Shown piece by piece: positions 2 to 58,280 of a stretch of DNA of 64,000 bases. Both the position numbers and the translations under genes were made by a program. Under the pieces are notes generated by a model. That model was not told the origin of the DNA. It did not search any database and saw only the letters and a program-made list of their open reading frames with translations. The stretch lies in NCBI GenBank assembly GCA_022606425.2, contig JAHDVF020001564.1, forward strand, positions 1,674,001 through 1,738,000, given 5' to 3'. The DNA is from Lepidostoma basale. Lineage: Eukaryota; Arthropoda; Insecta; Trichoptera; Lepidostomatidae. Within the stretch, counting starts at the first letter, position 1, and every line of letters starts with the position of its first letter.

Positions 2-226
2 AGAGGGTGTGAGCCAATAGGGACAAAATATCCTTGTCCAGAATATGACAAAGTCTGTGTCTGTGCAAATCAAAATTTTGACTATATAGCCACACCAGGT
101 GGCACAGAAGTCAGACCTTTTTATTTCTGTACTCATTTCTTCTCTTTCTGTACTTATGCTAGAAGTCAAGGGCAATGGGCATTTTACATGCTTTTGAACA
201 ACATACAATTTATTTTAAACTGTTAA
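2..226 (+). CDS. possible partial exon at window edge, cysteine-rich, unidentified
   Basis: One frame is open from base 2 to a TAA at 224-226 without needing an ATG. The first third has a spaced cysteine pattern (CEPIGTKYPCPEYDKVCVC). That could be the end of a small secreted-type domain exon from an upstream gene, or chance in a degraded repeat. The frame runs into the start of the PLE-F1 repeat at about 217, so its last codons are repeat. I see no clear donor site. Low confidence. Confidence 0.2.
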   Translation, partial: RGCEPIGTKYPCPEYDKVCVCANQNFDYIATPGGTEVRPFYFCTHFFSFCTYARSQGQWAFYMLLNNIQFILNC

Positions 227-271
227 AGTATAATAAATAATTTTGTTTTTGTATCACAATTGTATTTTATT

Positions 272-319
272 TTATGCAACAGCTGTTTCATCAACCTATG
301 TTTACATCATCAGGTATTA
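272..319 (-). ncRNA. hammerhead-ribozyme-like motif (PLE-F1, left arm)
   Basis: On the minus strand the CTGATGA box is at 313-307. A stem-loop ending in GTTGAT follows, then GAAA at 289-286, the palindrome ACAGCTGT at 286-279, and T at the cleavage position (278). Stem II has a G-U closing pair and a mismatch. Motif recognition only; activity is unknown. Confidence 0.4.
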
Positions 320-571
320 CAATAATATATCAAATGTCAAATTTTCGTGATTTTTCGAATCTTTATGGGTATTTGATCCTATGTCAATTTGAATAATTTC
401 ATTGATATAATTTTGAAGTTCTTGCTGAAATTGAGTTAGGTACCTAAATATTTTAATCAAAAGAACGGCTAGTTACTGTTTATAGGAGAAAATATTCAAG
501 GTAGAAAATAATAAAATAATAATAATAAAACAGTAATTAGAAGGAAAATTTGACATTTGATATATTATTTT

Positions 572-622
572 TAACACCTGATGATGTCAGCATAGGTTGA
601 TGAAACAGCTGTCGCATAAAAT
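572..622 (+). ncRNA. hammerhead-ribozyme-like motif (PLE-F1, right arm)
   Basis: The CTGATGA box is at 578-584, followed by one unpaired T. Stem II pairs 586-591 with 596-601 (six pairs including G-U). GAAA is at 602-605, the palindrome ACAGCTGT at 605-612, and C at 613 is the predicted cleavage nucleotide. It is the mirror image of the motif at 272-319. Confidence 0.45.
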
Positions 623-735
623 AAAATACAATTGTGATACAAAAACAAAAATATTTAATTTAATATTAAATGTTTAGGTATCATAGTGTATCGGCCAAAA
701 CAATGGACTATTATATAATTTATTGTATTATTTAG

Positions 736-1117
736 AAAAATAAACAAGGAAAGAGTGGATTCCGTATCCAGAAAAGGGATGACATGGACAGCGTATCATA
801 ACCTTAAATCAATTCACGCCTGGATGCATTCCCTACCGGACACATATCCAGGGAACGTGACTATCTTCAACTTCGGAACTTCGTACGAGACTAGGGCTAT
901 GAAAGCAGCGAAGATATCGTTCGGGAAAGGGCGAAGGGCGGTCTTCATCGAGGGAGGAATGCATGCGAGGGAGTGGATATCACCAGCAACTGTCACATAC
1001 TTGATCAACGAGCTCTTAACCAGTAAAGATCCAGCCTTTAGACAGGTGGCAGAGAGTTTCGATTGGTATATTCTACCAGTGGCTAATCCTGATGGATACG
1101 TCTATACACATACGGTG
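736..1117 (+). CDS. carboxypeptidase exon (first in window)
   Basis: The acceptor AG is at 734-735; the exon starts with the third base of a split codon and ends in phase 0 at the GTAAGT donor (1118-1123). It encodes the start of the catalytic domain (MTWTAYHNLKSIHAW), the zinc-binding HAREW and the conserved ANPDGYVYTHT. The GTG at 755 is not a start; the frame is open to the acceptor. Confidence 0.92.
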
Positions 1118-4100
1118 GTAAGTACAATTTTAATTCGCTTTTCCACCTGTGAATATTTGTTTATCATAATAAACTAAAACTAACTAACTAACCATCACGT
1201 CATCTCCCCGAAGGGATAGGTAGAAAGAATGGACTGCCACACTTTACTTTCCTGACATTTTTCTCTCACTTCCTCAACATTCATACATCGTGTCATGCAC
1301 GCGCGTCGATTTCTCTGACTCCTCACGTGGCCGACATTCAATATTTAATTTATTTGATCGTGCCACGTTTTTCTCGGTCTTCGTCTATTTCTAGTTCCAT
1401 TTACATTGTCAACATATATATATTTTTACCATTCTTTCATCATTCATTCATTCCATGGTTCCAAACCATCTTAATGATCCTTTCATTATTTTATTCATAA
1501 CAACAATATTCGCACCGCATTCAATTCTTATATTTTCATTCGACACTCATCATACACAGAGTATCCACACATTCGTCTTAAAGATCTAATTTCTACTGCA
1601 TTTATTCTACTTTCATCCTTCTTTTGCCAGTTCCATGCTTCGCTTCCATACATAAGGGCCGGTACAAGAACACCATTGTGCATTTCTATTATAGCTTTTT
1701 TGGATAGGTTTTTGTTTGCAATGACAACTTTAAGTGCATCATTCACTTTGTTGCCTGCCCCAACCCATTTTTCGATATCCCTCTCCACTCGCCCATCGTT
1801 TGTAAACATAATACCCAAATACACGAACTCATCTATATACTTGCTCCAAATTTTCACCGTTCACGCTAATGTTGCATGTCATGATTTCTCCTTTTTCAAA
1901 ATGAACCAATTCACATTCATCATCAGATCATTTCGCATGCATACCTCATATATACTATTCACCAGGACTTGTAGTTCATGCTCTTTGCCTGCAAGTAGGA
2001 CAGCGTCATCCGCATACAAGAGACAGGTTACTAACACTCTGCTCATTTTGGCACCTGCATCCAACCCTTTCAGCTCTTTCATCCACTTGTCCATATATAG
2101 ATTAAATAACCACGGGAATAATACGCAACCCTGTTTGACACTTTTATTGATATCAAACCAGGCTGTTTGATCTCCATTTACTCTGACACTAGCAGTGCTT
2201 TCCGTGTATAGCCACTTAATTGCCGTGATCAGTTTTTTAATTCCATATTCAGACAATATCTTCCACAACTTTACTCTATTTACCTAATTACTCTATTATC
2301 ATAATATAAAAGGCATAAACCCGAGTGTAATCAAATAGAGAACGAGAATATGTTGAATACAAGAGAGTGAGAGAGAAACACTTCGAATGCGCATGCCCGA
2401 TTCGAGTGCGTATGCTCAGTAACGTTATTTTGAAAGTTGTCGTTTGAAATTGACTGTCAGAAAACAAGTCAATAATCAAATTTTAAACGGGTTTAAAAAA
2501 AATTTATTAATTAAAAATTAAAACTCAAGGTTTTTAATAGTAAAAAAATTAAAACTCGAGGTTTTTAAGAGCCGTTCTCGGAGCACTAACCTCAAATTAA
2601 TTATTAAATGTTGAAATATAGAATGGTGACTTTTTCACGATGTCGGAAACGCGAACACATTAAAGTCAGTATATCTGAAACAAGTCTTCAGTTAAAACTT
2701 TATTGTAGATTTAAATTGAACAAAAGTAATGTATATATACACAACATCGTGTATAAAGAGATTTTAGACAATTAATTAAGTCTTTAAACATTAATGAACC
2801 CAAAAAACTTAAAACTGATCTTGCTCCTTTCGATATTTCTAAAATGTAGAATTTGGTTTGCATCCGTGAATATTTCACGGATTGCAACTAATCTTTTACT
2901 TTAACTTCTGATGTTGTCCACTGCTGGACATAGGTCTCTCTCATACTTCTCCACGTATTCCTGTCTTATGCCTTTCACATACAATCACCAGCAATTATTC
3001 GAATGTCATCAGAGCATCTTGAGGGGGTATCCGTCTGTTTAATTGAAAACTCCATATTTAATAATTAATGTGAATGAAAACGTCTGTTTTCTAGAAGTTT
3101 AATTATTTATGACGGGAATGACATATTTCACCTTGGTAAGGCGTTATCAAATGCATTTGATAATGCTTCAGCAATGATAACAGACGTTTCCAGTTATATA
3201 ATTATTATTTTTAATCATTCTTACATGACAAATGACAAAAGGTCTAGTCTACAAATTCAAGGTCGCCCAACGCGCCATGAAAAGAGCCATGCTTGGAATA
3301 ACCTTGAGGGACAGATTTAGATAAACGAATTTATTCGACAACATGAGGTGGCTTTGAGGATGGGCGATGAACTGGCCATATCTGTCGGAGAACCGACGGC
3401 CGACGGGGGAGACGGGTTCTGGAGTGGAGACCGTGTACAGGATTCCGCAGAGTTGGACGTCCCCCTGCCCGCTGGACCGACGATCTGAAGAGGATTGCAC
3501 GGCAATGGCAATGGATAGGGGGCGGTGGCGTGCTTTGGGAGAGGCCTACGTTCAGCAGTGGATGACAGACGGCTGATTATGACGATGAATCATTCTTGAG
3601 TGTTGGCTCAAAGTTTTACTTTTCATGCTAATGATATTATTTTAATTTTCAGAATAGATTGTGGAGAAAAACAAGAACAAACCATTCGTTCTTTTGTAGA
3701 GGAGCAGATCCCAACAGAAACTGGGACTTTGAATGGGGAAGTAAGTTTATCTTATACAGTAACTTCATATCATTATATAACCTAACTAACTAACCATCAC
3801 GCCGTCTCTCCGAAGGGGTAGGCAGAAAGAATGGACTACCACACTTTAACCTATGCGGACTCCATCTTTCTCTTTTCGGCCCGCGGGAGACGCGGTGTGA
3901 TGTGTGATTTTTATATTTCATTTTATAACTGTTAATTCAAAAACTTTGTTTTATATCACAAATTGTATTTATTTTACTTTACGACAGCTGTTTCATCAAC
4001 CAATGTTGACATCATCAGGTGTAACAAAAAATATATCAAATGTCAAATTTTTGTAATCTTTCGAATCTTTGTGTATTTGGACCTAAGTCAATTTTAATCA

Positions 4101-7100
4101 TTTATTTGATATAATTTTGAAGTTCTTGCTGAAATTGAGTTAGGTACCTAAATATTTTAATTTAAAGAACGGTTAGTTACTGTTTATGGGAGAACATATT
4201 GAAGGTAGAAAATATAATAAAAAATAGATAAAATAATAATAATAATAAACAATAATTAGAAGTATAGAGTCAAAAACAATAAAACATAATAAATTAAAAA
4301 CGATAAACAATAACAGGAAGTACATAGATTACATTAATAGGAAAGGTGACCAAAGTTGAAGGTAATATTATTATTTTTTAGCAAGATTGTACAGGGGAAA
4401 AGTTTTTAATGTACTATATACTAATGGGGAAGTGCAACTAAATCTACATAGATGGCTGACTGAAACTGCCACGTGAAGATAAATATGGATTTTGAAGTAT
4501 ATATACATCTTCCAAAAATTTGTCATGCATGATCACAAATAACAAAGGTGGAATGGGGAATGTTGTAATTACATAAAGCGTGCGCTTAACCCAACTAATG
4601 ACAGGTCATAAGTCCTGTAAACACCTCGATCATCCATGTTCAGTTTCCAGTTTACGTCTTCGTCTCTATTGAGATACAATTAAAATTTGAAAAAAAAGAA
4701 GGAATTTGGTTATTTATAACATTTAGTTTACATTTTTTGGCCTTTAAAATTTCAAAATTTTTTAATTTATCTAATTTTTGAGGATTATTTGCTATATGTA
4801 AAATTCACGCAATGATTGGCCATTTCCGATAAGATGTTTCTGTTTTTGTATGATATTTTGTGTTCGTATAACCTCTTCAAAAATGATCGACCCGTCTTTC
4901 CAATATACATGGCATCACAGTCACAATTAATCTGGTAGATTCCACTTTGATTGAAAATATTACGATTATCTTTAGAATTTTGAATTAACAGTTGTAAAAT
5001 GTTAAAATATCATAGTGTTTCGGCCAAAACAATGGACTATTTATATTTCATTGCTTAACCCTTAACGTACCGTGTTCAAAACAAAACGCTTGCTCCCATG
5101 TGGTAAGTTCAGTTTACCGCTAACTTTATCTAAATATCAAGCATATGACTAGATGAATCAAAATTTAATTTATGTCATCTTGTAGGGAATTTCATTAGGA
5201 ATAGATCGATATCTATAACATACATGGATTATTTGAAAAACATATCATTATTAATTTTTTTCTGGAACCATGCGATTTCTGATATGTAATGCGTCATAGC
5301 ATACGAATGACTGGACACGCAGGTAAAGACAAGCGCCGCGCGGCGGCCGGCGCGGCTAGACTTTACGAGATTTTAAGTATGATAAAGGCACCTAGGTATA
5401 GTACGTTCAAGACAACGAGTACGTATTAATATTTGTCCCTTTTGGTAAAGTGTTAATATTTTCACAGTTCTGATATTATTAAGTTACGTGGTGCGTTTTC
5501 ATCCAGTCGGTATTATTACGTACCTATTGAAAAGGTCAAAGATATAATTTATAATATGTTCAAAACAGCGAGTAAGTATTTGTCACTTTTGATAAAGTTG
5601 TGTGATAAAGTGAAGGTGAGGGCAGTCTTAGAAAATATTTTTTTTTGGGATGAAGGAAGTAATTTTTTGCTTTTTTTTTTATTACGAAATATTGAGAACA
5701 CTTCAATGGAGGATTACAATTTTTTTTATAATATTAGGGTCCATAGGTTTTAAGAAAATCAACTTTAAATTGGCAGTGGAAACTCAATTTACCACATGGC
5801 AACGCGACGGTTAAGATCAATTGAAAATGTATTAATATATTTCCTTTTTAGAGGAAGGATCGAGTAACCGTGTTTGTTCGGATATATATGCTGGACCATA
5901 TGCTTTTTCTGAAAGAGAAACCAATTACCTGGCCAACTTCTTGGAGACGATTGGAGATCAGCTAGATGTATACCTTTCATTCCACTCCTATTCGCAGCTT
6001 CTTCTCATGCCTTATGGACACACAACAGAGCATCTCGATAATTATAATGATGTCGTAAGTTTTCATGTAAAAACTAACTAACTAACTAACCATCACGCTG
6101 TCTGCTGAGGAAGGGGTAGCAGAAAGAATGGACTGCCACACTTTTATTTCCTGACAAATTTCTCTCGCTTCCTCAACATTCATACATCGTATCATGCACG
6201 CGCGTAGATTTCTCTGACTCCTCACGTGGCCGACATTCATGATTTGGTTTATTTGATCGTGCCACGTTTTCCTCGATTTCCCTCTATTTCTAGTTCTATT
6301 TACATCGTTAACATATATTTTTTTACCACTCTTTTTTCATTCATTCTTTCCATGTCTCCAAACCATCTTAATGATCCTTTCATTATTTAGTTCATAACAC
6401 CATCATTTGCACCGCATTCACTTCTTATATTTTCATTCGACACTCTATCATACACAGAGTATCCACACATTCGTCCAAGACATCTCATTTCTACTGCATT
6501 CATTCTACTTTCGTCCTTCTTTTGACAGTTCCATGCTTCGCTTCCATACATAATTTTTCCCTAGTCGACTACCTTTTTTAACTCGATAATACCGATTGAT
6601 TCGCGATTTAAGGAAAATATTGTCAGTCAATATTTAGGCGAACTTGAACGCATCGCGTGGTAAACACGAAATGATTACATTACATCTAAACATTCATACA
6701 TCGAGTCATGTACGCGCGTCAATTTCTTTGACTCCTCACGTGGCCGACTTTCAATATTTGGTTTATTTGATCGTGCCACGTTTTCCTCGGTCTTCCTCGA
6801 TTTCCAGTTCCATTTCCATTCCACGTTAACATATACTTTTTTACCATTAGTAACTTTTAAAACTTAAACGCTGCTATGGTATCACATTTTTTAATTATTT
6901 TTTTTCGCTACAGCCATTTCGCCAACCGATGTTGGCATCATCAGGTGTTTTTAAATTTATTTTATTTTTGAAAAAAATTGTGATATCATATCAACGTTTA
7001 AATTTTAACAGTTATCACAGTGTTTCGGCCCAAACAATGGACTATTTAAAAAAATGTGAATAAAGGACTTGTCAAGCTGTTAACTGTATTATTTTTTTTC

Positions 7101-10874: not shown

Positions 10875-11112
10875 TTTTTTTTTGTATACAACAGGTCGTT
10901 TGAACCCAATTACTATATACAATTTATTTTAGCTATAACAATATATTGATTATCATGACACGTGATAGGTAGCCAATCTATCGTCATTTTATTGTCACGT
11001 GAATTCTACACTAGACCAAAGACAGTGTGACAATCACACTGCCATCGCCGGGAATTGAACCCGGGATCTTCGATATGAAAGTCAGAGCTCTTACTACTCT
11101 GCCACGAAGGTC
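10875..11112 (-). mobile_element. tRNA-derived SINE, full copy
   Basis: The poly-A end is at the left (10875-10882 as T). On the minus strand the tRNA-like head starts at 11112 (GACCTTCGTGGCAGAG), with the box B word GGTTCAATTCC. The body (GTCACGTG, TAGATTGGCTACC) matches 12107-12351. Confidence 0.8.
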
Positions 11113-12106: not shown

Positions 12107-12351
12107 GACCTTCGTGGCAGAGTGGTAAGAGCTCTGATTCCCATTCCGAAGGTTCTGGGTTCGATTCCCGGCGATGGCAGTGTGATTGTCACATTATCTT
12201 TGGTCTGGCATAGTATTCACGTGACAATAAAATGGCGATAGATTGGCTACCTGTCACATGTCACGAGAATCAATATATCAGCTTAAAAAAAATGTATACT
12301 GTAATTGGGTTCAAGCAACCTGTTGTATACGTAAAAAAAAAAAAAAAAAAA
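12107..12351 (+). mobile_element. tRNA-derived SINE, full copy
   Basis: The tRNA-like head has box A TGGCAGAGTGG at 12115-12125 and box B GGTTCGATTCC at 12158-12168, both matching the RNA polymerase III consensus. A 145-bp tRNA-unrelated body ends with GTTGTATAC and an 18-A run. About 245 bp, probably young relative to its neighbours. Confidence 0.85.
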
Positions 12352-17109: not shown

Positions 17110-17448
17110 CATTTTAAAATGGTCCATTGTTTTGGGCGAAACACTATGATAAACTGTTAAATCAAAAAACTTTGTTTTATGTATCCACAACTGTAATTTA
17201 TTTTACGCGACAGCTGTTTCATCAACCTATGTTGACACCTACGTTACAATAATATATCAAATGTCAAATTTTCGTGATTTTTCGAATCTTTATGTGTTTT
17301 GTTCCTGTGTCAATTTGAAAAAAAAATAGTATATAAATAAATAAATAAAATAAAATAAAATACAATTGTGATACAAAAAACAAAGTTAATTCATTAACAG
17401 TTTGAAATGTTAAGGTATCATGGTGTTTCGGCCAAAACAATGGACTAT
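17110..17448. mobile_element. PLE-F1 short copy with flanking 15-bp direct repeats
   Basis: Inverted tips (CCATTGTTTTGGGCGAAACA at left, complement at right) and ACAGCTGTTTCATCAACC. The ribozyme-like core box is deleted. GAAATTAAATCATTT flanks both ends (17095-17109, 17449-17463), consistent with a target-site duplication. Confidence 0.65.
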
Positions 17449-21640: not shown

Positions 21641-22602
21641 AAATCTTTAAACTGTTAATGAAAAAACTTTGTTTTTTGTATCACAATTGTATTTTATTTT
21701 ACGCGACAGCTGTTTCATTACCTATCTTGACATCATCAGGTGTTTCAATAATATATCAAATGTCAAATTTTCGTGATTTTTCGAATCTTTATGTGTATTT
21801 GTTCCTATGTCAATTTGAATAATTTCTTTGATATAATTTTGAAGTTCTTGCTGAAATTGAGTTAGGTACCTAAATATTTTAATTAAAAGAATGGTGAGTC
21901 ACTATTTATAGGATAAAAAACATTAAAGGTGTAAAATATAATAATAAAATAATAATATTTATTTATTTATTTATTTATTTATCCATTATACACAAATGAG
22001 ACATTACAAACGATAAAACATTAAGGCGACTCATTTGGACACAAAACAGTATTACAAAGATAAAATAAAACAAAACAACATGAGACCAAAAAAATCATGC
22101 ATGTCAGAAGGAATCCAAATATTTCGACGTCAGTGAGGCAGTACTCTTTCCAGAGTTTGCAATATTTTTTTATGATTACTGCCTCACTGACACTGAAAAT
22201 GTCAAAATCCGAGATGATTAGATTCAGCGTCCGGATTGCTCTTCCTACTGGCATCACCAAAGACAGGTTGGTTCTGCGTTAAATTAAAGCAGTAATTAGA
22301 AGGAACTATTACACACAGTATAGAGTCAAAAACGATCAAACATAATCAATTAAAAACGAAAAACAATAACAGAAAGTAGATTACATTAATAGGAAAGGTG
22401 ACAAAAGTTGAAAGTGGTTTAATTATTTTTTTAGCTAGATTGTAAAGAGGAATTATGTACTATATATGTCAATTTGGGTTGATGAAACAGCTGTTGCGTA
22501 AAATAAAATACAATTGTGATACAAAAAACAAGTTAATTAATTTAACAGTTTAAAATGTTAAGGTATCATAGTGTTTCGGCCAAAACAATAGACTATATAA
22601 TA
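21640..22602. mobile_element. PLE-F1 copy with inverted ends, interrupted by LINE-C2
   Basis: The left arm (21645-21955) and right arm (22470-22600) are inverted. The middle 22285-22440 matches 4250-4400 of the GIY-YIG copy. LINE-C2 occupies 21957-22284. The hammerhead-like motif at 21746-21699 (minus) is weakened by stem changes, and the right arm has lost its core box. Confidence 0.6.
21957..22284 (-). mobile_element. LINE-C2 3' end (AAATA tail) nested in PLE-F1
   Basis: (ATTT)n at 21957-21980 is the reversed tail. The minus strand encodes LVMPVGRAIRTLNLIISDFDIFSVSE and related text, as at 53140-53500. Confidence 0.7.
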
Positions 22603-26164: not shown

Positions 26165-26365
26165 CTGGAATTGTTGATGTTCATGTGTTACAATGACACA
26201 GGAATAAATTCATATAAAGATTTGAAAAATCACCAAAATTTGACATTTGATATATTTTTGTAACGTCTGATGATGTCAGCATAAGTTGACGAAACAGCTG
26301 TCGCGGAAATAAAAATACAATTGTGATACCTAAAACAAAGTTATTTAATTTAACAGTTTATTTGT
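26165..26365 (+). repeat. PLE-F1 right-arm fragment
   Basis: AAATCACCAAAATTTGACATTTGATATA, the hammerhead-like motif and the ACAATTGTGATACC arm; the tip is degraded after 26360. Confidence 0.6.
26261..26310 (+). ncRNA. hammerhead-ribozyme-like motif (PLE-F1)
   Basis: CTGATGA at 26267-26273; stem II GTCAG/TTGAC (26275-26279 with 26286-26290) closed by G-C; GAAA at 26291-26294; palindrome ACAGCTGT 26294-26301; C at 26302. The flanks pair CGT with GCG as a three-pair stem I. Confidence 0.5.
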
Positions 26366-39069: not shown

Positions 39070-39215
39070 AATTTTGAATGCGTTTTTATATTAGTCTTTG
39101 TTTGTTTAGTTTTTATTATATTTTTACACCTAAAGATGGAGGTATCCTCCGAAACACATTGTATTTTTTAATATTTTGTGGATTAAACAAAGTTATTTTC
39201 AATTTCCTAAGTATA
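39070..39215 (+). repeat. PLE-F3 terminal repeat with degraded hammerhead-like motif
   Basis: Matches 46235-46400 (minus) and 50590-50800 (plus). The stem GGAGG/CCTCC is intact at 39137-39150 but the core box is CTAAAGA. Confidence 0.5.
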
Positions 39216-42429: not shown

Positions 42430-42625
42430 CCAATTTTTTTTTAGATGGTGCACATATTGTCTATAATACACTTTTAGTAATTTGTATAAACACCACTTTA
42501 TTTGGTATGTAATACCAACCGGTTTCGCTCTCGCCGGAGCTTCGTCAGGGTCAGAGAGTAAACTAAATATAAAATCACAGAACAACCTATGAAGAAATAA
42601 AAATAATAGATAGAGTGGGGGTACG
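42430..42625 (-). repeat. PLE-like repeat F4 with hammerhead-like motif
   Basis: Minus strand 42556-42505: CTGACGA (42548-42542), A, stem GCTC/GAGC, GAAA, palindrome ACCGGT (42523-42518), U at the H17 position. ACC/GGT pair as stem I. The right flank (42440-42475) shares GATGGTGCACATATTGTCTAT with NA-A. Confidence 0.5.
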
Positions 42626-46234: not shown

Positions 46235-46570
46235 CCTTTATAACTCAGGAAATTGAAAAACTTTGTTTAATCCACTATTTAATAAAAAAATATTTAAAAA
46301 AACACGACATGTTTCGGAGGATACCTCCATCTTCAGGTGTAAAAATATAATAAAAACTAAACAAAGAAAAACTAATAAAAAGCGCATTTAAAATTCGATA
46401 CAATAATTCAAATTTAAAAATTAACCTGTGCTATTTTTTATAAGTAGTTACTAACATATTTTTTTAACAGTAAGAACTAATTAATAATATAAAATAATAA
46501 AAATATATGATGATAATGTAAAAAAAAATTGTAATATAGAAAAAACATACATTTGAAAATACATAATTTA
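46235..46570 (-). repeat. PLE-F3 repeat copy
   Basis: Complement of the 39070-39215 block with additional upstream sequence. Contains the best-formed F3 hammerhead-like motif. Confidence 0.55.
46300..46342 (-). ncRNA. hammerhead-ribozyme-like motif (F3)
   Basis: Minus strand: stem I ACAC (46340-46337) pairs with GTGT (46305-46302). CTGAAGA at 46336-46330, T, perfect GGAGG/CCTCC stem around TAT, GAAA at 46315-46312, palindrome ACATGT, and GTC cleavage triplet with C at 46306. Confidence 0.55.
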
Positions 46571-46599
46571 TATAGAAATTAATAAATGATTAATTTGCA

Positions 46600-46882
46600 T
46601 TTGATTGGGAATGGGTGCTTGGGAGATTAAATGTAGACAAAGTCTATATAACTCTTCAGTCAGAAGCAGGTTCGAGGGAGGTGCCATGATATGGAGTCCT
46701 CATGAGGCTCAGTATTCTCTCTTGTTGGAGAGGGTTCAAAAAAAATTCTTGAGAGCCCTCTTCACGAGAGAGTACGAGGTATATCCTTGGCTTTATCCAA
46801 CGGCATTTCTCTTGGGTATGCTGGTGTATAACTCCCTCGAACTGAGGAGGGAAGGATTAATGGCAACATTTTGATTTGATTA
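46600..46882 (+). mobile_element. LINE-C fragment
   Basis: AMIWSPHEAQYSLLLERVQKKFLRALFTREYEVYPWLYPTAFLLGML in one frame; TTTTGATTTGATT follows directly, so the element is internally deleted to its tail. Confidence 0.75.
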
Positions 46883-50589: not shown

Positions 50590-50800
50590 GCAATTAGTCC
50601 AAGTTATTATTTTTTTATTTCAAATGTGTTGTACTTTTGTATTGTATCGATTTTATATGCCCTTTAATAAGTCTTTCATTGTTTAGTTTTTTGTTATATG
50701 TTGCACCTGAACATGGAGGTCTCCTCCGAAACATGTTATGATATTTAATATTAAAGTGGATAATGAACAACGTTATATTTTTATTTCCAAAATGTATAAC
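50590..50800 (+). repeat. PLE-F3 terminal repeat copy
   Basis: CACCTGAACATGGAGGTCTCC, then CTCCGAAACATGTT: stem and palindrome preserved, core box changed at G8 (CTGAACA). Confidence 0.5.
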
Positions 50801-57002: not shown

Positions 57003-58280
57003 ACTACCTAACTAACCATTACACCGTCTCTCCGAAGAGGTAGGCAGAAATAATGGACTGCCACACTTTTCTTTCCTGACATATTTATCTCACTTCCTTA
57101 ACATTCATACATTGTGTCATGCACGCGCGTCGATTTCTCTGACTCCTCGCGTGGTCGACATTCAATATTTGAATTATTTGATCGTGTTACCTTTTCCTCG
57201 GTCTTTCTCTATTTCTAGTTCCATTTAAATCGTTAACATATATATTTTTACTATTCTTTTTTATTAAATGAGCGGAAAGTCAGTAAGCTGTCTCTTGTAT
57301 GCGGATGACGCTGTCCTACTTGCTGACAACGAGCATGAACTACAAGTCCTGGTGAATTGTATGTATGAGGTATGCATGCGAAATGATCTGATGATGAATG
57401 TTAATAAGTCCAAGAAAATGATTTTTGAAAAGGAAGAAACCATGACAGTCTGCAACATTAGCGTGAATGGTGAAAATTTGGAGCAAGTAGTTGAGTTTGT
57501 GTATTTAGGTAGTATGTTTACAAGAGATGGGAGAGTGGAGAGGGATATTGAAAGAAGGGTTGGGGCAGGCAACAAAGTGAATGGTACACTTAAAGTTGTC
57601 ATCGCAAACAAAAACCTATCCAAAAAAGCTAGAATGGCAGTGCACAATGGTGTTCTTCTACCGACCCTTATGTATGGAAGCGAATCATGGAATTGGCAAA
57701 GGAAGGATGAAAGTAGAATAAATGCAGTAGAAATGAGATCTCTTAGACGAATCTGTGGATATTCTGTGTATGATAGAGTGTCGAATGAAAATATAAGAAG
57801 TGAATGCGGTGCGAATGATGGTGTCATGAACAAAATAATGAAAGGATCATTAAGATGGTTTGGACATATGGAAAGAATGAATGAAGAAAGAATGGTAAAA
57901 AAATTAAATGTTAATGATGTAAATGGTACCAGAAATAGAGGAAGACCGAGGAAAACGTGGCACGATCAAATAAATCAAATATTGAATGTCGGCCATGTGA
58001 GGAGTCAGAGAAATCGACGCGCGTGCATGACACGATGTATGAATGTTGAGGAAGCGAGAGAAATATGTCAGGAAAGAAAGGTGTGGCAGTCCATTCTTTC
58101 TGCCTACCCCTTCGGGGAGACGGCGTGATGGTTAGTTAGTTAGTTTTCTTTATTCTTTCATTCTTTCCATGTGTCCAAACCATCTTAATGATCCTTTCAT
58201 TATTTTGTTCATAACACCATTATTCGCACCGCATTCACTTCTTATATTTTCATTCGACACTATCATACACAGAAGTACTT
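57003..58280 (-). mobile_element. older LINE-A copy, split by a younger LINE-A
   Basis: 57259-57003 carries the 3' end and tail on the minus strand. 58151-58280 carries the adjoining upstream part (SNENIRSECGA to FGHMERMNE). The parts join when the plus-strand copy and one TATTCTTT duplicate are removed. Confidence 0.75.
57260..58150 (+). mobile_element. LINE-A, best-preserved copy, with 8-bp target duplication
   Basis: One 286-codon frame (57268-58128) runs from SCLLYADDAVLLADNEHELQ (RT catalytic box) through YLGSMFTRDGRVERDIERR, LMYGSESWNWQRKDESRINAVE, LRWFGHMERMNEE and RGRPRKTWHDQI to ILSAYPFGETA. Stop TGA at 58126-58128, then TGGTTAGTTAG. TATTCTTT flanks it at 57252-57259 and 58151-58158. 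The RT N-terminus and any endonuclease are lost by 5' truncation. Confidence 0.88.

What the first reader, a model, noticed from the sequence alone, without database searches (positions are those of the whole stretch)
46300..46342. Hammerhead-ribozyme-like motif with a proper stem I in repeat family F3
Minus strand: ACAC, CTGAAGA, T, GGAGG-TAT-CCTCC, GAAA, palindrome ACATGT, GTC, GTGT. All three helices can form and the cleavage triplet GTC is present. The only departures from the textbook core are one extra base after the CTGANGA box and a stem III that is a loopless palindrome, which would favour cleavage as a dimer. Hammerheads are known in Penelope-like elements and animal retrozymes.
Basis: partly seen in the sequence, partly recalled or inferred. 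Interest (0 to 1): 0.85.

Follow-up and report, generated by a model that had tools for sequence, protein, structure and literature searches.

The report
Penelope retroelement hammerhead with extra base
The spot is a copy of a small hammerhead-like self-cutting RNA motif that sits in the end repeat of a Penelope-like jumping gene; the kind is already known, but in this genome motifs of this form match at more than twenty thousand places, and the copies examined nearly always carry one extra A or U in the core.

Summary
On the minus strand, 46302-46340 is a complete type I hammerhead core (CTGAAGA, 5-bp stem II, GAA, A..U stem III ends, GTC, 4-bp stem I) with one extra U after A9 and a loopless palindromic stem III. 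It is not chance. In 264 kb of this genome, 22 of 25 descriptor hits have exactly one extra base and none has zero; shuffles give 0.7 and 0.5. A genome-wide pattern gives 21,737 hits against 1 for the reversed control. Stem II changes compensate in a second family. F3 is the end repeat plus tail of a Penelope-like element: one copy carries a GIY-YIG remnant upstream, and 18 of 28 loci are head-to-head pairs, 12 of these 18 sharing 9-14 bp at their outer ends, as published for Penelope (PMC3846280, PMC11167929). The extra base is A or T in 99 of 100 listed hits, which fits a viroid hammerhead with an extra A10 where U is tolerated but not C or G (PMC3705267). Verdict: a member of the known minimal, dimer-type Penelope hammerheads. 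Catalysis is untested.

The parts
46302..46340 (-). Hammerhead-like motif (F3 copy): stem I ACAC/GTGT, CTGAAGA, extra U, stem II GGAGG-TAT-CCTCC, GAA, palindromic stem III ACATGT, cleavage site after C46306
   Evidence: Read directly; descriptor hit; F3 loci compared
46329..46329 (-). The extra base (U10) between A9 and G10.1 of stem II
   Evidence: T in 44 of 48 F3 copies (C 1, A 1, gap 2)
46240..46643 (-). F3 repeat copy: 5'-truncated Penelope pseudo-LTR ending in the hammerhead and a short tail (approximate ends)
   Evidence: Extent of similarity to other F3 loci, upstream limit inferred; short-tail end as
39126..39164 (+). Second F3 copy of the motif; core damaged (CTAAAGA) and stem III broken
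50703..50741 (+). Third F3 copy of the motif; G8 changed (CTGAACA), stem I and triplet altered
578..613 (+). Motif of a second family (F_A): CTGATGA-T-GTCAGC ATAG GTTGAT-GAA-ACAGCTGT-C (C of CTGA to H17)
26267..26302 (+). F_A family motif
3983..4018 (-). F_A family motif
6909..6944 (-). F_A family motif with changed stem III; stem II carries a compensatory C-G pair
278..313 (-). F_A family motif with one broken stem II pair; head-to-head partner of the motif at 578
21705..21739 (-). F_A family motif with a deletion in stem II (left out of the alignment)
42517..42548 (-). Single motif of another family: CTGACGA-A-GCTC..GAGC-GAA-ACCGGT-T, extra base A

Best explanation
The motif is the minimal, dimer-type hammerhead of an endonuclease-bearing Penelope-like element (PLE). 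It lies near the 3' end of the pseudo-LTR (pLTR), just upstream of the tail where reverse transcription starts. Shown here: the core, the helices, covariation of stem II in a sister family, the extra A/U, a GIY-YIG remnant upstream in one copy, and head-to-head insertions with outward tails and shared outer ends that look like target-site duplications. Inferred: because stem III is a loopless palindrome, one RNA cannot close it, so two motifs (from tandem pLTRs in one transcript or from two RNAs) pair through stem III and stem I and cleave after the GUC. Inferred: the extra A/U bulges between A9 and stem II and is tolerated, as in the plus hammerhead of chrysanthemum chlorotic mottle viroid. 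In vivo it probably trims or marks tandem PLE transcripts, perhaps only when the PLE protein is bound. The window copy is a 5'-truncated insertion and is probably not itself in use.
For: Sequence and descriptor. Offset scan of 264 kb (200 kb sampled from one contig plus the window): 25 hits, 22 with one extra base (16 outside the window), 0 with none, 1 with two, 2 with three; 17 of the 22 have a palindromic stem III; shuffles 0.7 and 0. Genome-wide pattern 10,949 + 10,788 hits against control 1 + 0. In the first 100 listed hits 82 have stem II >=4 bp against 20.5 after shuffling the interior, and the extra base is A 63, T 36, C 1, G 0. F_A copies chosen by similarity alone, with no demand on stem II: 20 copies, 113 of 118 cells paired, two pairs changing on both sides, extra base T in 20 of 20. 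GIY-YIG, 30.2 bits against a cut-off of 22.6, in L076 about 490 nt upstream of its motif. Head-to-head pairs in 18 of 28 loci, one long and one short tail in 12 of 18, shared outer ends of 9-14 bp in 12 of 18 against 1.9% for random places. Co-folding two F3 RNAs gives -24.7 kcal/mol against -8.2 for one, so -16.4 for two apart (no shuffle control). PLE hammerheads in print: PMC7761336 and PMC6155905 (passages), PMC11167929 (passages and part 1 of 2 of the main text).
Against: No cleavage was tested. Rfam hammerhead models do not match, though the attempted control also gave none. Within F3 the motif is no better conserved than the sequence upstream of it (0.956 against 0.955) and shows almost no compensatory change, as expected for dead copies, so F3 alone shows no constraint. 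Stem I is weak: 72.9% of cells paired, where one slid control also reaches 9 cells with changes on both sides against 11 observed; F_A and the GGAC family form few stem I pairs. The rows were hand-picked, mostly from descriptor hits that already had 4 bp of stem II. Insertions contain both sides of the cleavage site, so the reverse-transcribed RNA was uncut; PMC11167929 likewise found cleavage unnecessary for insertion in vitro, no cleavage without protein, and no RNA reads at the site. F3 neighbours are head-to-head, so a transcript through them would not carry two motifs in tandem; tandem pLTRs one element length apart were not looked for.
Confidence: 0.88

Rival explanations
1. A structural relic or RNA-binding fold: the hammerhead shape is kept in PLEs as a binding or priming landmark for the PLE protein, and the extra base shows that cleavage is no longer selected.
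For: Insertions carry the uncut motif. In PMC11167929 (passages) the hammerhead did not cleave without protein and its mutants did not affect insertion. Stem I is weak in several families.
Against: The catalytic residues recur with many stem II sequences (the searches themselves asked for these residues), and the extra base is A or T in 99 of 100, the two bases a viroid hammerhead tolerates.
Confidence: 0.3
2. A retrozyme: a small non-autonomous tandem repeat processed by its own hammerhead into circular RNA.
For: Short repeat length (about 0.3-0.4 kb) and a type I layout.
Against: 18 of 18 neighbouring copies within 700 bp are head-to-head and none tandem; a GIY-YIG remnant is attached to one copy; loop II is only 3-6 nt in the window's motifs and stem I has no loop, so the loop-loop contacts of canonical type I hammerheads are not apparent.
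Confidence: 0.05
3. A chance palindrome cluster or terminal inverted repeat of a DNA transposon that only mimics a hammerhead.
For: Copies form inverted pairs with shared outer ends, which a DNA transposon would also give.
Against: Variable 5' truncation at the inner ends, two alternative outer ends, a GIY-YIG remnant, and several families with the same core and spacing.
Confidence: 0.03

Closest known systems
[quoted passage not shown] Lunse, Weinberg and Breaker 2017; neither held, known here through citing papers and recall)
   Same: Type I layout, missing helix III, dimer action proposed, place in the pLTR of PLEs, thousands of copies per genome (PMC7761336 passages)
   Different: Whether the published members carry the extra A/U between A9 and stem II could not be checked. 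From recall, animal repeats of the form CTGATGAAG...CGAAACG suggest that they often do
Hammerhead of Poseidon from Anolis carolinensis (PAc), PMC11167929
   Same: [quoted passage not shown] in F3 A9-U-G spell ATG and the cut is 25 nt from its A. The protein cleaves and extends both target strands, which could give head-to-head insertions (inference)
   Different: In F3 the frame from that ATG stops after 12 codons; another ATG opens in the long tail (read by eye). The PAc sequence itself was not seen
Plus hammerhead of chrysanthemum chlorotic mottle viroid, PMC3705267 (passage)
   Same: One extra base (A10) between A9 and G10.1; A10U was faster, A10C and A10G were harmful
   Different: A viroid ribozyme, not a retroelement
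Penelope families of Adineta vaga, PMC3846280 (passages)
   Same: Head-to-head inverted pLTRs, a short tail optionally on one of them, 8-10 bp target-site duplications
   Different: The listing counts no mention of hammerhead; the paper describes low Penelope copy number

Membership tests
Hammerhead ribozyme (type I) | Conserved core C3-U-G-A-N-G-A9 and G12-A-A | tested here: met
Hammerhead ribozyme (type I) | A15.1-U16.1 at stem III and an NUH cleavage triplet | tested here: met
   ACATGT then C: GUC
Hammerhead ribozyme (type I) | Three helices around the core | tested here: inconclusive
   Stems I and II form in one strand; stem III only between two strands. Dimer-acting hammerheads are accepted members (PMC6155905 passage)
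Hammerhead ribozyme (type I) | Stem II follows A9 directly (textbook spacing; not strictly defining, since the CChMVd plus hammerhead has an extra base there, PMC3705267) | tested here: not met
   One extra U here; 22 of 25 hits in 264 kb have one extra base, none has zero
Hammerhead ribozyme (type I) | Match to Rfam hammerhead models (a recognition test, not a definition) | tested here: inconclusive
   No match; the control gave no hammerhead match either, so the test lacks proven power
Hammerhead ribozyme (type I) | Self-cleavage after H17 | not testable with these tools
   Needs in vitro transcription
Penelope-like element | GIY-YIG endonuclease | tested here: met
   PF01541 above cut-off in one of 28 F3 loci, L076; a C-terminal coding remnant also in L061 (by eye). 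The other loci were not scanned
Penelope-like element | Telomerase-like reverse transcriptase | not tested
   No full-length copy was sought or fetched
Penelope-like element | Head-to-head pLTRs, tail on one of them, short target-site duplications | tested here: met
   18 of 28 loci paired, 12 of 18 long/short, 12 of 18 with shared ends of 9-14 bp
Retrozyme (animal, non-LTR) | Tandem short repeats | tested here: not met
   0 of 18 neighbouring F3 pairs within 700 bp in tandem

The most novel reading that the evidence does not exclude
The palindromic stem III acts as a dimerisation site that holds two template RNAs in one PLE ribonucleoprotein, much as retroviral genomes are paired. Each template is then reverse transcribed from one of the two nicked target strands, one starting at the near site and one at the far site. 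This would explain in one step why insertions are head-to-head with one short and one long tail, and why the hammerhead fold and palindrome are kept although the inserted RNA is uncut.
Probability: 0.12. Interest if true: 0.8.

Novelty: new member of a known kind. Interest (0 to 1): 0.38.

Why it matters
A review seen in passages (PMC7761336) calls the role of hammerheads in Penelope-like elements unknown. This genome offers a large natural experiment: over 21,000 pattern hits in several stem II families, with a near-fixed extra A/U that in a viroid is tolerated only as A or U. It makes two questions testable: whether PLE hammerheads are still selected for cleavage, and whether pairing of two template RNAs through the palindrome shapes the head-to-head insertions.

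Tried and rejected
Rfam search as a test of identity: no hammerhead match, but the attempted control also gave none, so it was not used as evidence against.

Viral contig scan for related motifs: 56 stretches. Stem II of 4 bp or more at zero extra bases in 2 (L007, L027) and at one extra base in 6; of these eight only L027 has stem I of 3 bp or more. The pattern itself asked for a G..C pair at offset 1, so it says nothing on spacing. They look like chance or phage hammerheads; I recognised no PLE-type copy.

Idea that the extra U is simply the U of a start codon: rejected as a general cause, because 63 of the 100 listed genome hits have A there and so no ATG.

Constraint inside F3: no excess conservation of the motif over its upstream flank, and only 1 of 48 copies changes both sides of a stem II pair.

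Pattern with two extra bases: 2,312 + 2,252 hits against control 1 + 1, but by my own eye count 85 of the 100 listed also read as one extra base with a GGG stem; not evidence for two. The matching zero-extra pattern was asked ten times and never answered, so the comparison of offsets rests on the 264 kb scan.

Family search for GIY-YIG over the genome did not complete.

Added after the first attempt to file: a pair count on copies chosen by similarity alone, because the rows had been picked partly for an intact stem II.

Full report
What is there. The minus strand at 46302-46340 reads ACAC-CTGAAGA-T-GGAGG-TAT-CCTCC-GAA-ACATGT-C-GTGT. Read as a type I hammerhead, it has the full conserved core, a 5-bp stem II, a 4-bp stem I, A15.1 and U16.1, and a GUC triplet with the cut after C46306. 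Two more F3 copies in the window are damaged.

More than chance. A descriptor allowing 0-2 extra bases found four hits in the window, each with exactly one extra base; shuffles gave almost none. I then scanned 264 kb, made of 20 stretches of 10 kb spaced along one contig plus the window, asking for exact CTGANGA and GAAA, stem II of at least 4 bp and 0-3 extra bases. It gave 25 hits: 22 with one extra base (16 of them outside the window; 17 with a palindromic stem III), 0 with none, 1 with two and 2 with three, those last three without a palindrome. Twenty shuffles of the same length gave on average 0.5 hits for zero, 0.7 for one, 0.5 for two and 0.35 for three. The motifs fall into several families: GGAGG/CCTCC (F3), GTCAAC-type with palindrome ACAGCTGT (F_A), GGAC/GTCC, and GCTC/GAGC-like. 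A genome-wide pattern with one extra base and a GG..CC stem gave 10,949 and 10,788 hits on the two strands against 1 and 0 for the reversed control, in 769 Mb. That pattern fixes the offset, so it shows abundance, not spacing. Among the first 100 listed hits, 82 have stem II of 4 bp or more against 20.5 after shuffling the interior, and the extra base is A in 63, T in 36, C in 1 and G in 0. These copies are not independent; by eye the list holds about nine or ten stem II families.

Base-pair covariation. Copies chosen by sequence similarity alone, with no demand on stem II: in F_A, 20 copies, 113 of 118 stem II cells pair, two pairs change on both sides (U-A and C-G), and the extra base is T in 20 of 20; in F3, 48 copies, 217 of 231 cells pair, one copy changes both sides of a pair, and the extra base is T in 44, C in 1, A in 1 and missing in 2. 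Two hand-picked alignments, made mostly of copies that the descriptor had found, agree: 11 F_A copies with 65 of 66 cells paired and slid controls at most 43.9% (one F_A copy of the window was left out for a deletion), and 12 F3 and GGAC-family copies with 84.1% of cells in stems I and II paired and 11 cells changed on both sides (4.1 shuffled), where one slid control reaches 9 and stem I pairs in only 72.9% of cells. So stem II is well supported; stem I is supported for F3 and weak elsewhere. Within F3 the motif is not better conserved than its upstream flank (0.956 against 0.955, 45 copies).

What carries it. The window lies in an unnamed 769-Mb assembly. A 151-bp F3 query gave 40 scored matches from 381 candidates. 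I compared 28 loci (8, the window's own place among them, and 20; the other 12 scored matches were not fetched). The 5' ends vary and the 3' ends are mostly of two kinds: a short tail ending near CTAAGT and a long tail ending near AATAAGTT. In 18 of 28 loci two copies lie head-to-head within 700 bp, with tails outward; no tandem or tail-to-tail neighbours within 700 bp were found. Tandem copies a full element apart would have escaped this test. Of the 18 pairs, 12 have one short and one long tail, none has two of the same kind, and 6 have an end that fits neither class. 12 of 18 share 9-14 bp at their outer ends, against 1.9% for random places. In L076 a GIY-YIG endonuclease remnant (30.2 bits, cut-off 22.6) and the end of its frame lie about 490 nt upstream of the motif, and the whole is bounded by a shared 12-mer. 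Some F_A copies show the same head-to-head layout; one pair at 17111-17448 shares a 15-mer at its ends, while most F_A pairs in that call showed no shared end of note.

Match with what is known. PMC3846280 (passages) describes Penelope insertions bounded by inverted, head-to-head pLTRs, with a tail optionally present on one of them and target-site duplications of 8-10 bp. PMC11167929 (passages and part 1 of 2 of the main text) reports that a Penelope-like protein cleaves and extends both target strands, starts reverse transcription internally, and carries a hammerhead whose G8 precedes the start codon, with the cut 26 bp after the start codon. In F3 the letters A9-U-G spell an ATG and the cut lies 25 nt from its A; that frame stops after 12 codons (by eye). 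Reviews seen in passages state that many animal genomes hold thousands of minimal type I hammerheads lacking helix III, that some map to pLTRs of PLEs, and that they may act as dimers, with unknown role (PMC7761336; PMC6155905). The two primary papers (2014, 2017) are not held.

The extra base. PMC3705267 (passage) states that the plus hammerhead of chrysanthemum chlorotic mottle viroid has an extra A10 between A9 and G10.1, that changing it to U raised the trans-cleaving rate 3-4 fold, and that C or G were harmful. The A/T preference seen here, with almost no C or G, agrees with that. A 2011 survey of natural core variants (PMC3088659, passages) mentions insertions after A6, in GAAA and near C3, but none after A9 in the passages seen. 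I found no statement in the held library that PLE hammerheads carry the extra base, but the decisive alignments were not available, so I do not claim it as new.

How it likely works. A single RNA can form stems I and II but not stem III; two RNAs, or two pLTRs in one tandem transcript, can share stem III and stem I. Co-folding two F3 motifs gives -24.7 kcal/mol against -8.2 for one (no shuffle control). Cleavage after the GUC is inferred from the core alone. Inserted copies contain both sides of the site, so cleavage is not required of the inserted template. That leaves room for a second role of the palindrome: pairing two template RNAs so that both target strands are copied, which would give the head-to-head products. 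This is conjecture.

Verdict. The finding is real and correctly read. The window's motif is complete, in a truncated insertion, and belongs to a known kind of element-borne hammerhead, with a spacing quirk that is the rule among the copies examined in this genome.

Noticed in passing
L057-L084 (F3 loci): F3 insertions are often head-to-head pairs (18 of 28 loci) with one short and one long tail (12 of 18, none same-same) and shared 9-14 bp ends (12 of 18).
   Followed up: yes
window 216-742, 3934-4262, 17111-17448, 21657-21957: F_A family repeats with the same hammerhead layout; several are in head-to-head pairs, one with a 15-bp shared end.
   Followed up: partly
window 719-1174 (+): Zinc carboxypeptidase (PF00246) coding stretch, probably an exon or gene remnant.
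   Followed up: no
window 1170-1500 and many similar places in the window: A very abundant dispersed repeat of about 330 bp in BLAST of the window against itself.
   Followed up: no
window 57268-58125 (+): Open frame with a sub-threshold reverse transcriptase match (PF00078, 26.8 bits, cut-off 29.6).
   Followed up: no
window 12108-12179 (+) and 11040-11111 (-): Two weak tRNA matches just above the Rfam gathering score, possibly tRNA-derived repeats.
   Followed up: no
L062 91(-), L062 1013(-), L065 2380(+), L081 1968(-), L102 8956(+): Further hammerhead-like motifs of other stem II families, extra base A, met in flanks and samples; the stem II of L081 is doubtful.
   Followed up: partly
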